Assembly: GCF_026240635.1 (NCBI RefSeq)
Contig: NZ_CP110848.1
Coordinates: 1,118,501-1,182,500 of the forward strand
Length of the DNA stretch: 64,000 nucleotides
DNA from: Trichothermofontia sichuanensis B231
GTDB lineage: Bacteria > Cyanobacteriota > Cyanobacteriia > B231
Direction of reading: 5' to 3'
In this document: piece by piece, positions 2,282 through 63,504 of the stretch
Layout of the letters: each line of letters begins with the position of its first letter
Position numbering within the stretch: position 1 is the first letter of the stretch
The notes under the pieces: generated by a model
Seen by the model: only the letters and a program-made list of their open reading frames with translations
What the model was told of the DNA's origin: nothing
The model's database searches: none
Translations under genes and position numbers: made by a program

Positions 2282-2305
2282 GTAGTCAGTTGAAATTAAA
2301 AGAAT

Positions 2306-2417
2306 GGCTCTCCTGAGTTTATGGTGGGGGCGCATAGCGCCCCCACCATAAACTCAGCGTTTCCGATCGTTTATTGGTAGTTGCTGATACTGTTTACCCC
2401 AAAATCCCAGAAGGGTC
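2306..2417 (+). repeat. Family A element, copy A1 (112 bp, hairpin-bearing, MITE-like)
   Basis: The ends are inverted: GGCTCTCCTGAG (2306-2317) and CCCAGAAGGGTC (2406-2417). Inside, positions 2313-2333 and 2337-2357 form a perfect 21-bp inverted repeat with a three-base loop. The rest (2358-2417) is matched by copy A3 in opposite orientation. The element lies between the convergent M42 and murG genes and runs into the murG coding end, so it may form a bidirectional transcript end. It has no ORF. No clear target duplication is visible. Confidence 0.85.
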
Positions 2418-3482
2418 AGATAGTTGTCGAATTAAATTGGCGACCTGTTGGGCACTGTCGGGAACCGCGATCGCCTGTGCTCGCTTGGCCATCTGCGCCA
2501 AGGCTCCCTCAGCCTGAAGCAAACTCAGCACCTTTTCCCGCAATAACTCTGGGGTTAACTGACTTTGCGGCAGCCACAAGGCTGCCCCTGCATCAGCGAA
2601 AATTTGGGCATTATAGGTCTGGTGATCCTCGGCAGCATAGGGGTAGGGAATCAGGATTGAGGGTGTACCTGTTATCGCTAACTCCGTTAAACTACCCGCC
2701 CCCGCTCGACTAATGACCAGATTTGCCCGCGTTAACAAACTGGCCATCTGCTCCCAAAACGGCAAGGCTAGGTAATGGGGATGCTGCAACGCCCAGCGAT
2801 CGGGATCATGTTCCCCCGTCAGATGCACGATCCAAATCCCCGCCTCTAACCAGGTCGGGGCACACTGGCGCACCAATTGATTGACCGCAACAGCCCCCTG
2901 GCTTCCCCCCACAACGACGAGCAAGGGGGCCGTGTCAGGCACCGCTAATGGTAACGGCGCCTGGGTTGATTGGAAAAACTGCGATCGCACGGGGGTACCC
3001 ACGGTCATCGTTCTGGCTTGGGGTAACCGGGCCGCCGCCTGCGCAAACCCGATCGCCGTCACCGTACACCACCGGCTCAACCAAGTCGTCACCTTCCCCG
3101 GAATGGCATTCGACTCATGCAAAATCACTGGCAACCCCAGCGATCGCGCTGCCAAAATCGCCGGCGCCGCAATATACCCCCCCGTGGTAAACACCCCACA
3201 AAAATGTCCCTGTTTTAACCAGCGTCGAACCTGTAACATGGCCAGCGTCATGCGCCCCAGCAGCCCCAGGGTTGATAATCCCAGCCCTTGCTGCATACCT
3301 CCGATCGCAACCGTCTTCAGGGGATAGTGGGGGGGGATGAGCGTGACCTCTAGGCGATCGGGCACCCCTAACCAGGTAATCTCATAATCAGATAGGGCTT
3401 CGGCTACTGCTAAAGCCGGGAAAAGATGCCCCCCGGTACCACTAGCAGCAATTAACAGGCGTTTAGGCGTCGTTGGCGTCAC
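2394..3482 (-). CDS. murG: UDP-N-acetylglucosamine--N-acetylmuramyl-(pentapeptide) pyrophosphoryl-undecaprenol transferase MurG
   Basis: MurG adds GlcNAc to lipid I to make lipid II, the last cytoplasmic-face step of peptidoglycan precursor synthesis. The GT28 signature is clear: an N-terminal glycine-rich loop GTGGHLFPALAVAEAL near residue 15, then HESNAIPGKV, and the donor-binding region GAGSLTELAITGTPSILIPYPYA towards the C-terminus, with GGSQGAV between the two Rossmann domains. 362 residues is the expected length. The last seven codons (DPSGILG) and the stop lie inside family A element A1, so the C-terminal tail has been rewritten by the repeat. The gene stands alone; a truncated DUF4351-type fragment follows upstream. 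Confidence 0.96.
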   Translation of the reverse strand: MTPTTPKRLLIAASGTGGHLFPALAVAEALSDYEITWLGVPDRLEVTLIPPHYPLKTVAIGGMQQGLGLSTLGLLGRMTLAMLQVRRWLKQGHFCGVFTTGGYIAAPAILAARSLGLPVILHESNAIPGKVTTWLSRWCTVTAIGFAQAAARLPQARTMTVGTPVRSQFFQSTQAPLPLAVPDTAPLLVVVGGSQGAVAVNQLVRQCAPTWLEAGIWIVHLTGEHDPDRWALQHPHYLALPFWEQMASLLTRANLVISRAGAGSLTELAITGTPSILIPYPYAAEDHQTYNAQIFADAGAALWLPQSQLTPELLREKVLSLLQAEGALAQMAKRAQAIAVPDSAQQVANLIRQLSDPSGILG

Positions 3483-8530: not shown

Positions 8531-8633
8531 TGGTTAATCCCAATAAGAACGATGCAGCCTTTCACTCCCCTCTCCCGCTCTGGGAGAGGGGCTGGGGGTG
8601 AGGGTGCTGTTTCAGTCTAAATTGCAATGACCA
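8531..8633 (+). repeat. Family B element, copy B1
   Basis: A 103-base element starting TGGTTAATCCCAATAAG and ending ATTGCAATGACCA, bordered on both sides by TA. The core is a hairpin of CTCTCCC and GGGAGAG followed by GCTGGGGGTGAGGG. It fills most of the gap between the TPR gene and proS (8426-8784), which otherwise holds nothing I can call. Confidence 0.85.
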
Positions 8634-8784
8634 TAAAACGCCAATCCTCAAACCCTAGTCGTCTGCCTTGCTTAAAGTGACGGGCTGTCGGTTGGCGTCG
8701 ATCCTACAAGGCCCAACCCGTTCACCAGCCTTGTTGGGTTGCACTGCGTTTGATCCAACTTACCCAATTAATCTTGACAGATTA

Positions 8785-10808: not shown

Positions 10809-10810
10809 TA

Positions 10811-10974
10811 CAGCCTTTACCTAATTTACTCAGTACACCGTTAAGGTTTAGATCTGGATCCTACTGGCGGCCCTCATCCCCCGACCCCTTCTCCCAAGTG
10901 GGGAGAAGGAAACCCAGCGGGCTGCACCCATTCTACCCCCGTAAAACTGTACTTTATGATTGAGGTAAAGGCTG
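10811..10974. repeat. Family D element, copy D1 (intact, 164 bp)
   Basis: Terminal inverted repeats CAGCCTTTACCT (10811-10822) and AGGTAAAGGCTG (10963-10974) are perfect over 12 bases, and TA borders both sides. The centre contains the hairpin-forming CCTTCTCCC and GGGAGAAGG. It has no ORF. Copy D2 at 58694 shares long stretches, and D1 shows the site in D2 before B6 inserted. Confidence 0.85.
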
Positions 10975-11055
10975 TAGTTCATATAGAGGATTGTTTAAGG
11001 GGTGCTCTGGGTCTGCAACTTGGCACAATGGTGACCTGAATCAACGGGGGCATTA

Positions 11056-11155
11056 TGGTCAATCCAAATAAGAACGATACAGTTTTACTCCCCTCTCCCA
11101 GAGCGAGAGAGGGCTGGGGGTGAGGGGGCTGTTTCAGTCTAAATTGCAATGGCTA
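11056..11155 (+). repeat. Family B element, copy B2
   Basis: A 100-base element starting TGGTCAATCCAAATAAG and ending AAATTGCAATGGCTA, flanked by TA at 11054-11055 and 11156-11157. The central arm reads CTCTCCCAGAGCGAGAGAGG, so the hairpin is partly degraded relative to other copies. Confidence 0.85.
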
Positions 11156-12493: not shown

Positions 12494-12526
12494 GATGAAA
12501 AATCAGGGTTAATTAGGATCAAAAAT
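12481..12526. repeat. 23-base tandem duplication across the MFS gene stop codon
   Basis: Units 12481-12503 and 12504-12526 are identical except for one G/C change. The first contains the TAG stop of the MFS gene. The second ends exactly where element A2 begins. Confidence 0.85.
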
Positions 12527-12606
12527 AGCTCTCGTGAGTTTATAGTGGACGCGCCTAGCGCCCCGACAATAAACTCAACACTTTAGATCGTTTATTTTTA
12601 GAACAG
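12527..12606 (+). repeat. Family A element, copy A2 (degenerate)
   Basis: The left end AGCTCTCGTGAG and the hairpin (12534-12577, arms with several mismatches) correspond to A1. The segment GATCGTTTATTTTTAG matches the A1 right arm, but the terminal CCCAGAAG is missing, so this copy is decayed. It sits 33 bases after the MFS stop and just upstream of the next gene. Confidence 0.7.
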
Positions 12607-13448: not shown

Positions 13449-13504
13449 GGATATTAGGCCAGTCTAGCGATGGGACCTTTGATGTCTAAAACTGTCAATA
13501 ATCC

Positions 13505-13616
13505 GGTTCTTCTGGGATTTTGGGGTAAGCAGTATCAGCAGCTACAAATAAACGATCGTAAATGCTGAGTTTATGGTGGGGGCGCGTAGCGCCCCCACCA
13601 TAAACTCAGAAGAGCC
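13505..13616 (-). repeat. Family A element, copy A3 (112 bp, inverted relative to A1)
   Basis: This copy has the same 112-base length as A1, in opposite orientation. Ends are GGTTCTTCTGGG (13505-13516) and CTCAGAAGAGCC (13605-13616), and the perfect 21-bp hairpin spans 13565-13609. It lies 57 bases after the stop of the prenyltransferase-fold gene and dominates the 349-base gap to the next gene. Confidence 0.85.
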
Positions 13617-13748
13617 GCCAATTTAATCAAGTTTGGGGTTAATAAAATGACTAAAATCATGACTGCAATCATCAACCCTTACTACAATCGTCAAGCGATC
13701 ATGTAATATAGTCAAATAATCAAATAGTAATTTAATTGTGTTACCGTA

Positions 13749-20045: not shown

Positions 20046-20148
20046 TAGTCATTACAATTTAGGCTGAAACAGCACCCTCACCCCCAACCCCTGTCCCAGA
20101 ACGGGAGGGGGGAGTGAAAAACTGTATCGTTCTTATTTGGGTTGACCA
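20046..20148 (-). repeat. Family B element, copy B3 (inverted)
   Basis: A 103-base copy in reverse orientation, starting TAGTCATTACAATTTAGG and ending TCTTATTTGGGTTGACCA, bordered by TA at 20044-20045 and 20149-20150. It lies between the divergent methyltransferase and diguanylate cyclase genes and so may affect either promoter. Confidence 0.85.
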
Positions 20149-32727: not shown

Positions 32728-32830
32728 TGGTCAATCTAAATAAGAACGATATAGTTTTTCACTCCCCTCTCCCGCTCTGGGAGAGGGGTGGGGGGTGAGG
32801 GGGCTGTTTCAGCCTAAATGGCAATGACTA
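32728..32830 (+). repeat. Family B element, copy B4
   Basis: 103 bases, starting TGGTCAATCTAAATAAG and ending ATGGCAATGACTA, flanked by TA on both sides. It ends 36 bases before the aminotransferase start, so its right part lies within that gene's likely promoter or leader. Confidence 0.85.
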
Positions 32831-34021: not shown

Positions 34022-34326
34022 CCCCTGCTCACCCTGAATGGGGGTAGGTTGGGCTGGTTACGTGAGGAGAGAGCAGAAAGCAGAGAGGAAAGCGGTAAGA
34101 AGGAAGCAACCCGCTTTGGTCCGGGTTGACTGATGAATCTTTGCCCCTCACGTGCGGGGAAAGAAGAGACGAAAGAGAACGGCGATCGTCGCTCAGTTTT
34201 CCTCACTTCTCACGCCTCTATCCTCACTCCTAAATTCCTGGCTTGATGAGCACCTCGCCCGCTCGGGGAGAGGGGTCGGGCAGTTCGAGTTTGGTCAGTC
34301 AATCAGGTAGGTTGTCAAACGCCGTG
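34022..34326. other. Intergenic stretch between the aminotransferase gene and repeat C1
   Basis: 305 bases with no supported gene. It contains a purine-rich stretch (about 34060-34115) and, at about 34275-34305, CAGTTCGAGTTTGGTCAGTC, a fragment of the repeat also seen at about 45630-45655 and 59465-59488. Confidence 0.5.
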
Positions 34327-34469
34327 GGGAGCATCTCAGTTGGGCAAGATGCGGCCCTCATCCCCCAACCCCTTCTCCCCACTTGGGAGAAGGGGAGCCG
34401 GATTTTCCAGTCCCTCTCCCGCTCTGGGAGAGGGATTTAGGGTGAGGGCCGCATAAGTGAGATGCACCC
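34327..34469. repeat. Family C element, copy C1 (143 bp) with 9-bp target duplication
   Basis: Ends GGGAGCATCTCA and TGAGATGCACCC are inverted repeats (11 of 12). AACGCCGTG lies directly outside both ends (34318-34326 and 34470-34478), an exact 9-base direct repeat. The interior has two hairpins (CCTTCTCC/GGAGAAGG and CTCTCCC/GGGAGAG). No ORF. It sits upstream of the KefB-type gene. Confidence 0.9.
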
Positions 34470-34692
34470 AACGCCGTGCGACTCAACTTGAGTTAAAACG
34501 GATTGCACGGATTGCACCGATTACGTGGATACAACCTTGGTGGGTAGGGGAGAGTCAGTATGCCTTGAGCCATCGCCAGCCAGCTATCTGGGATTGGGCG
34601 ACGACTTTGCTAATACCCGCTTGAAACCCAATTGAAAGTTGTACAGTAAAGTAACAAGACGTAACAACTTTCTCAGAATTGGTCACGCGACT

Positions 34693-41564: not shown

Positions 41565-41707
41565 GGGCGCATCTCAGTTGGGCAACATGCGGCCCTCATC
41601 CTCTAACCCCTTCTCCCCAAAAGGGAGAAGGGGAGCCGGATTAGCAAATTCCTCTCCCAGAACGGGAGAGGAATTTAGGGTGAGGGTCGCACAAGTGAGA
41701 TGCACCC
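41565..41707. repeat. Family C element, copy C2 (143 bp) with 8-bp target duplication
   Basis: Same length as C1 with ends GGGCGCATCTCA and TGAGATGCACCC. ACAAAACC occurs directly outside both ends (41557-41564 and 41708-41715). The two interior hairpins are conserved. No ORF. Confidence 0.9.
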
Positions 41708-41713
41708 ACAAAA

Positions 41714-45529: not shown

Positions 45530-45591
45530 GATATGTACGATTGAATTACAGCCTTTTTCTTATAGTTATTTCAGATTAGAAAGAGATGTCT

Positions 45592-45655
45592 AAGCCCCTC
45601 TCCCCCTGTGGGAGAGGGGTTGGGGTGAGGGCAGTCCGAGTTTTGTCAGTCAACC
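45592..45655. repeat. Repeat fragment with shared CTCTCCC core (family E)
   Basis: CCCCTCTCCCCCTGTGGGAG begins a hairpin followed by GGTTGGGGTGAGGGCAGTCC and GAGTTTTGTCAGTCAACCA. The last part recurs at about 34280-34305 and as the right half of chimeric element B7 (about 59465-59488). I could not define its ends. Confidence 0.5.
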
Positions 45656-45679
45656 AACTGTGTAGGGTCGCACCCCTCT

Positions 45680-55131: not shown

Positions 55132-55234
55132 TGGTCAATCCAAATAAGAACGATACAGTCCTTCGCTCCCCTCTCCCGCTCTGGGAGAGGGGCTGGGGGT
55201 GAGGGTGTTGTTTCAGCCTAAATTGCAATCACTA
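55132..55234 (+). repeat. Family B element, copy B5
   Basis: 103 bases with ends TGGTCAATCCAAATAAG and ATTGCAATCACTA, flanked by TA at 55130-55131 and 55235-55236. It lies in a 622-base gap. Confidence 0.85.
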
Positions 55235-58629: not shown

Positions 58630-58693
58630 AGAAGTGTTGGTTAGAGACCGAGACAGCTAGCCTAGAACCTGACGACAGGAGGGCACCTGGATA

Positions 58694-58949
58694 TAGCCTT
58701 TACCTAATTGACTCAGTACACCGTTAAGGTTTGGCTCTGCATCCGATCGGCAGCCCGCATCCCCCAACCTCGCCTGCCAAACGGGGCGAAGGGGACCCTC
58801 ACCCTACCCCGGTAGAACTGTATGGTCAATCCAAATAAGAACGCTACAGTTTTTACTCCTCTCTCCCGCTCTGGGAGAGAGACTGGGGGTGAGGGGACTG
58901 TTTCAACCTAAATTGCAATGACTATACTTTATGATTGAGGTAAAGGCTG
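58694..58949. repeat. Family D element, copy D2, interrupted by B6
   Basis: The ends TAGCCTTTACCTAATTGACT and AGGTAAAGGCTG match D1 (10811-10974), and TA lies outside. Positions 58823-58924 are a complete family B element. Removing it and one TA restores ACTGTACTTTATGATTGAGG exactly as in D1. The remaining D sequence is about 152 bases and differs from D1 in its central hairpin. Confidence 0.9.
58823..58924 (+). repeat. Family B element, copy B6 (nested in D2)
   Basis: A 102-base copy starting TGGTCAATCCAAATAAG and ending ATTGCAATGACTA. TA at 58821-58822 and 58925-58926 is the duplicated target, because D1 has a single TA there. This copy is younger than the D2 insertion. Confidence 0.95.
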
Positions 58950-58979
58950 TATCATGCAGATCATCAGCAGATCATCAGA

Positions 58980-59363: not shown

Positions 59364-59391
59364 CAGTGGCTTCTCCTCAACGCTTAACCTA

Positions 59392-59490
59392 TGGTCAATC
59401 CAAATAAGAACGATACAGTTTTTCACTCCCCTCTCCCGCTTTGGGAGAGGGGTTGGGGTGAGGGTAGTTCGGGTTTTGTCAGTTAATCAG
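59392..59490 (+). repeat. Chimeric family B/E element, B7
   Basis: The left half (59392-59466) starts TGGTCAATCCAAATAAG after TA and follows family B through the CTCTCCC/GGGAGAG hairpin. The right half switches to GGTAGTTCGGGTTTTGTCAG, the sequence seen in family E at 45630 and 34280, and the B right end is absent. The switch falls just after the shared core. Confidence 0.75.
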
Positions 59491-59615
59491 CCCTCATCCT
59501 CTAGCTTCTTCTCCCAACTTAATCTACTCTACTGAACCTATCGACTTAACCTAACTGTACCGCTTGGCGACTCAATACCTTGCCGGCAGCCAGCGACAAT
59601 TTCATTAGCTAGGTT

Positions 59616-59726
59616 GGCTCCCCTGGGTTTATGGTGGGAGCGCTTAGCGCTCCCACCATAAACCTAACATTCAAATCTTGTGTTTGTAGTTGCTTATAGG
59701 GTTTACACCCAAATATTGGAAGGGCC
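59616..59726 (+). repeat. Family A element, copy A5 (111 bp)
   Basis: Ends GGCTCCCCTGGG (59616-59627) and TTGGAAGGGCC (59716-59726), with the hairpin at 59623-59667. GCTAGGTT lies before it and GCTCGGTT after it (7 of 8 identical), a possible 8-base target duplication. It ends 26 bases before the ExbD stop on the opposite strand. Confidence 0.85.
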
Positions 59727-63401: not shown

Positions 63402-63504
63402 TAGTCATTACAATTTAAGCTGAAACAGCACCCTCACCCCCCACTCCTCTCCCAGTGCGGAAGAGGGGAGTTAAAAATTGTATCGTTCTTATTTGGATTG
63501 ACCA
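63402..63504 (-). repeat. Family B element, copy B8 (inverted)
   Basis: 103 bases in reverse orientation, TAGTCATTACAATTTAAG to ATTTGGATTGACCA, flanked by TA at 63400-63401 and 63505-63506. It is closest to B3 in sequence and orientation. Confidence 0.85.

What the first reader, a model, noticed from the sequence alone, without database searches (positions are those of the whole stretch)
58694..58949. Nested mobile repeat with its empty site in the same window
Element B6 sits inside element D2. The intact D1 (10811-10974) contains a single TA where D2 carries TA, then B6, then TA. Removing B6 plus one TA restores the D1 sequence exactly across the junction. This fixes the ends of family B, proves a TA target duplication, and orders the two insertions (D first, B later). 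TA duplication is characteristic of IS630/Tc1-mariner-type transposition, so B is probably a non-autonomous derivative of such an element.
Basis: seen in the sequence. Interest (0 to 1): 0.7.

Follow-up and report, generated by a model that had tools for sequence, protein, structure and literature searches.

The report
Nested TA-flanked MITE of ISY100 type
A short non-coding mobile DNA element, present in hundreds of copies in this cyanobacterial genome, has inserted at a TA inside another short element; its ends match the known ISY100 transposon group, so it is a new family of a well-known kind whose one unusual feature is a widespread predicted triplex-forming DNA motif as its core.

Summary
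At 58821-58926 a 102-bp element (B6) sits between two TAs inside D2. Removing it with one TA gives the junction ACTG-TA-CTTTATGATTGAGGTAAAGGCTGTA, identical to D1. The result repeats: B copies elsewhere in the genome have unoccupied paralogous sites, in D copies and in one copy of a third repeat family, and one other D is hit at the same TA in the opposite orientation. Of 57 full-length B copies, 53 have TA on both sides and 48 are exactly 103 bp.

B's 29-bp ends match those of the ISY100 clade of IS630/Tc1-mariner elements (up to 25/29; shuffle maximum 20). This genome holds no intact partner, only a decayed 908-bp ISY100-type relic and a fragment. D's different ends match the genome's other IS630 group. 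So B and D are MITEs of two different IS630 subgroups.

B has about 300 recognisable left ends in the 4.44-Mb genome and none in 385 other genomes of the phylum. Its core matches the described intrastrand-triplex motif, widespread in cyanobacteria. That motif as MITE cargo is the one new element; otherwise this is a new member of a known kind.

The parts
58694..58949 (+). Element D2: MITE with IS630-type ends (TAGCCTTTACCT...AGGTAAAGGCTG), split by B6; flanked by TA at 58692-58693 and 58950-58951
   Evidence: D termini match the left end of IS630 group a of the same genome 20-22/29
58821..58822 (.). TA flanking B6 on the left (target TA)
58823..58924 (+). Element B6: 102-bp copy (consensus 103 bp) of MITE family B, no coding capacity, ISY100-type ends TGGTCAATCC...GCAATGACTA
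58925..58926 (.). TA flanking B6 on the right (second copy of the target TA)
58857..58897 (+). Core of B6 (approximate limits): CTCTCTCCC-GCTCT-GGGAGAGAG followed by GGGGGTGAGGGG, match to the intrastrand-triplex motif
   Evidence: hairpin; consensus z -3.5, this copy z -2.2; motif described in PMC4666352; core widespread in cyanobacteria
10811..10974 (+). Element D1: unoccupied paralogue of D2; one TA at the site where D2 holds B6; flanked by TA at 10809-10810 and 10975-10976
8531..8634 (+). B copy, flanked by TA (right limit approximate)
11056..11155 (+). B copy, flanked by TA
20046..20148 (-). B copy, flanked by TA
32728..32830 (+). B copy, flanked by TA
55132..55234 (+). B copy, flanked by TA
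63402..63504 (-). B copy, flanked by TA

Best explanation
B is a MITE of the ISY100 clade of IS630/Tc1-mariner transposons. It has about 103 bp, made of two imperfect 29-bp ends (counted with the TA) around a 40-bp triplex-motif hairpin. An ISY100-type transposase acting in trans would cut it out at its ends and paste it into TA dinucleotides, duplicating the TA (inferred from ISY100 biochemistry). It spread to hundreds of places in this lineage. At 58821 one copy entered a TA inside an older MITE, D2, whose own ends belong to a different IS630 subgroup. Shown: the nested structure, unoccupied paralogous sites, TA flanks, end similarity, a relic partner, high copy number. Inferred: that an ISY100-type transposase moved it, and that movement has stopped or slowed because no intact partner was found.
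For: Junction identical to D1 after removal of B6 plus TA. Further unoccupied paralogous sites, among them L111 (same TA of D, opposite orientation), L115, L116 and L117 in D, and L128 in another repeat family whose unoccupied form is in the window at 59626-59716. TA on both sides in 53/57 copies, 48 of exact length. Ends match ISY100-clade termini: BL 25/29 with G018, 24/29 with L175, BR 22/29 with the Synechocystis pSYSG copy; none of 100,000 shuffles reached the G018 value, and TA sites scoring 20/29 or more are rare among all TA sites of the fetched loci (34 of about 19,000; ends computed). Decayed ISY100-clade relic with TA-flanked ends in the same genome. ISY100 transposase inserts into TA, duplicates it, and needs only about 30 bp of each end (PMC2170065).
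Against: No intact ISY100-type transposase gene was found in the genome. The relic's ends match B only 17-21/29, so it need not be the actual partner. No close relative is held, so no copy is seen present in one strain and absent in another. The interior of B shows no transposase remnant, so descent by internal deletion is not shown.
Confidence: 0.93

Rival explanations
1. B was moved by the genome's other IS630 group (group a or b), the one whose ends resemble D.
For: These IS630 loci are the only ones detected by the DDE_3 family model in the genome, and they too are flanked by TA.
Against: Their ends match B only 8-12/29, at the level of chance (shuffle mean about 10), but match D up to 22/29. 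All five group-a copies examined share an in-frame TGA.
Confidence: 0.04
2. B spread by homologous recombination or gene conversion between triplex cores, with the TA flanks fortuitous.
For: The core is shared between families, and one apparent chimera exists (59390-59490).
Against: Fixed ends and length, TA on both sides in 53/57 copies, clean unoccupied sites, both orientations at one TA. Recombination would carry flanks along.
Confidence: 0.02
3. The D2/B6 arrangement was copied as a composite: B had entered another D first, and the pair then moved as a unit.
For: At least one other D (L111) has a B at the same TA.
Against: L111 holds B in the opposite orientation, so it is an independent event; no second copy with the D2 arrangement was seen in the fetched loci.
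Confidence: 0.05

Closest known systems
ISY100 (ISTcSa) of Synechocystis sp. PCC 6803, IS630/Tc1-mariner family
   Same: Imperfect inverted ends of the same type (17-22/29 to the pSYSG copy), TA target, TA on both sides; mini-elements with 30 bp of each end are as efficient as the full element (PMC2170065)
   Different: ISY100 is 947 bp and encodes a transposase; B is 103 bp, codes for nothing and has a triplex-motif core
Nezha and other cyanobacterial MITEs
   Same: Short, non-coding, inverted ends, cyanobacterial (Nezha is cited as a cyanobacterial MITE in PMC3733652 and PMC10969869)
   Different: The Nezha paper and sequence were not held here, so no sequence comparison was made
Intrastrand triplex motif TM (Holder et al. 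2015, PMC4666352)
   Same: The core of B has the same C-run, G-run, G-run architecture; the motif is frequent in cyanobacteria
   Different: In E. coli the authors found the motif not associated with transposons, phages or plasmids; here it lies inside MITEs

Membership tests
MITE of IS630/Tc1-mariner (ISY100 clade) | Insertion at TA, TA on both sides, unoccupied site with one TA | tested here: met
MITE of IS630/Tc1-mariner (ISY100 clade) | Terminal inverted repeats related to an autonomous IS630 element | tested here: met
   B ends 20/29 to each other, up to 25/29 to ISY100-clade termini, shuffle maximum 20
MITE of IS630/Tc1-mariner (ISY100 clade) | Short, no coding capacity, high copy number | tested here: met
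   103 bp; 251 left ends at up to 1 mismatch, 298 at up to 2, reversed-pattern control 0 in this genome
MITE of IS630/Tc1-mariner (ISY100 clade) | Autonomous partner in the same genome | tested here: inconclusive
   Only a decayed ISY100-clade relic and one fragment
MITE of IS630/Tc1-mariner (ISY100 clade) | Mobilised by that transposase | not testable with these tools
   needs a transposition or binding assay
Intrastrand triplex motif (TM) | C-run, loop, G-run, spacer, mirror G-run in the core | tested here: met
   Consensus CCCCTCTCCC-GCTCT-GGGAGAGGGG-CTG-GGGGGTGAGGGG; hairpin z -3.5 for the consensus; compared by eye with the motif sequences in PMC4666352
Intrastrand triplex motif (TM) | Actually folds into a triplex | not testable with these tools
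   needs CD, NMR or DMS footprinting
Nezha | Sequence identity with Nezha | not tested

The most novel reading that the evidence does not exclude
In this lineage the widespread intrastrand-triplex motif is spread as cargo of Tc1/mariner-type MITEs of at least two IS630 subgroups (B and D), and the shared core lets recombination swap ends between MITE families. This would give the motif a concrete means of dispersal, where it had been reported as unlinked to mobile DNA in E. coli.
Probability: 0.35. Interest if true: 0.55.

Novelty: new member of a known kind. Interest (0 to 1): 0.38.

Why it matters
It gives fixed ends, target and relative age for a lineage-private MITE family with about 300 recognisable ends in one 4.44-Mb genome, ties it to a transposase clade with working in vitro biochemistry (ISY100), and shows in this genome how a widespread predicted triplex-forming motif can be dispersed by transposition. 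The last point is testable.

Tried and rejected
The DDE_3 family search found no IS630 with B ends in the genome; a profile of the ISY100 clade then found the relic. A first script for D copies timed out. Rfam and tRNA scans of the window: nothing. B left end in viral contigs: no exact match; full-length B in plasmids: none, core only. Relatives of the upstream gene were found only in distant cyanobacteria at 40-57% identity, so no orthologous empty site was looked for there. The Elhai 2008 paper on small mobile repeats was not held. Several hits that looked like unoccupied sites were alignments to the element's own filled copy (for example L205, L124, L015, L036) and were discounted.

Full report
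The window lies at 1,118,501-1,182,500 of a 4.44-Mb single-contig genome. It is a cyanobacterium: all named relatives of the gene upstream of D2 are cyanobacterial. No relative closer than the same class was in the sample of relatives, so comparison with a sister strain was not possible.

Observation. The sequence at 58694-58949 is as described. B6 is 102 bp (58823-58924) between TA at 58821-58822 and TA at 58925-58926. Without B6 and one TA, 31 bases across the junction are identical to D1. D1 and D2 are 75-81% identical overall, so D1 is a paralogous unoccupied site and not the parent.

Replication. I collected 57 distinct full-length B copies from the fetched loci: 53 have TA on both sides, 48 are exactly 103 bp. 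Fetched copies were mostly chosen by similarity to the query and are not a random sample. The six window copies scored are 89.7-94.4% identical to the consensus, while some copies elsewhere are 100% identical, so insertions differ in age. Joining the flanks of each TA-flanked copy with one TA and searching the held sequence gave unoccupied paralogous sites for several. L116, L117, L115 and L111 are D elements; L111 has B in the opposite orientation at the same TA as D2. L128 is a different repeat family (palindromic GTTTATGGTGGG...), whose unoccupied form is in the window at 59626-59716. L127 has B at a TA inside a triplex core. L112 holds two B copies in one D, one of them damaged. At two places (L119, L122) the outer end of D beyond B is missing.

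What B is. Its ends, TATGGTCAATCCAAATAAGAACGATACAG and (reverse complement of the other end) TATAGTCATTGCAATTTAGGCTGAAACAG, agree with each other at 20 of 29. In the own genome the DDE_3 family finds IS630 loci of two groups. The left end of group a is TACAGCCTTTCCCT...GTACA; it matches D (20-22/29) and not B. In relatives I fetched IS630 elements and computed their TA-flanked ends: G018 has TATAGTCATTTCAAATAAGAACGAGACAG, 25/29 to B; many others of the same transposase clade match 19-24/29, while more distant IS630 elements do not. That clade includes the element on Synechocystis PCC 6803 plasmid pSYSG, which I take to be ISY100 by host, length (950 bp with TAs) and transposase; the record does not name it. 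Most members carry an A-rich run at the junction of two reading frames, which suggests frameshifting (inference).

Partner. A profile of eight clade members found in the own genome a degraded copy at 1,823,273-1,823,783 (E 1.5e-39) and a fragment at 880,006-880,188 beside a B copy. The first is a 908-bp TA-flanked element with ends 22-26/29 to clade references and 17-21/29 to B; its reading frame is broken by stops and frame changes. So the clade was present, but no intact gene was found.

Mechanism. For ISY100, transposase alone excises and inserts the element, almost always at TA with TA duplication, and 30 bp of each end is sufficient (PMC2170065). B has this minimum and little else. Trans-mobilisation is therefore the best explanation; it is inferred.

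Distribution. B's left end occurs 251 times with up to 1 mismatch and 298 times with up to 2, and in none of 385 other genomes of the phylum, nor exactly in viral contigs. The joint pattern of ISY100-type end plus core occurs 138 times here and in none of 339 other class genomes; the pattern is strict, and one looser relative exists in G008 (L086, 76%).

Core. Positions 36-76 of B match many cyanobacteria at up to 98-100% without B's ends. The sequence fits the intrastrand-triplex motif of Holder et al. 2015 (PMC4666352), who report it as frequent in cyanobacteria and, in E. coli, not associated with transposons, phages or plasmids. By my reading, about 11 of 14 core-like sites in the window lie in B, a B-like subfamily, a B chimera or D; this count is by hand. 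The association with MITEs is shown for this genome only; triplex formation was not tested.

Verdict. A sound, well-read observation; B is a new member of a known kind, with a cargo that may be of interest.

Noticed in passing
window 45561-45656; L086; L112 233-328; L206: A B-like subfamily with a different ISY100-type left end, TATAGTTATTTCAGATTAGAAAGAGATGTCTAAG, and the same triplex core.
   Followed up: partly
window 59390-59490: Apparent chimera: B left end and core joined to the right end of another repeat (...GTTTTGTCAGTTAATCA, also at 45595-45656 and near 34280), suggesting exchange at the core.
   Followed up: no
L061-L065 (IS630 group a in the same genome): All five copies examined share an in-frame TGA at the same codon although they are 97-99% identical; no intact group-a gene was seen.
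   Followed up: partly
L118, L120, L023: Short tandem duplications of an element end (D end or B end) directly beside the element.
   Followed up: no
window 34327-34470 and 41565-41708: Another repeat family with GCATCTCA...TGAGATGC near its ends and two triplex-like cores.
   Followed up: no
window 2295-2426, 12508-12578, 13496-13627, 59597-59720: Palindromic repeat family GTTTATGGTGGGGGCGC...GCGCCCCCACCATAAAC; one copy elsewhere (L128) carries a B insertion.
   Followed up: partly
L097, L102 and Pseudanabaena galeata plasmids (H44-H46): The triplex core occurs without B ends, apparently inside protein-coding genes in other cyanobacteria.
   Followed up: no
L119, L122: D elements holding a B at a TA but lacking the outer end of D beyond B.
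   Followed up: no
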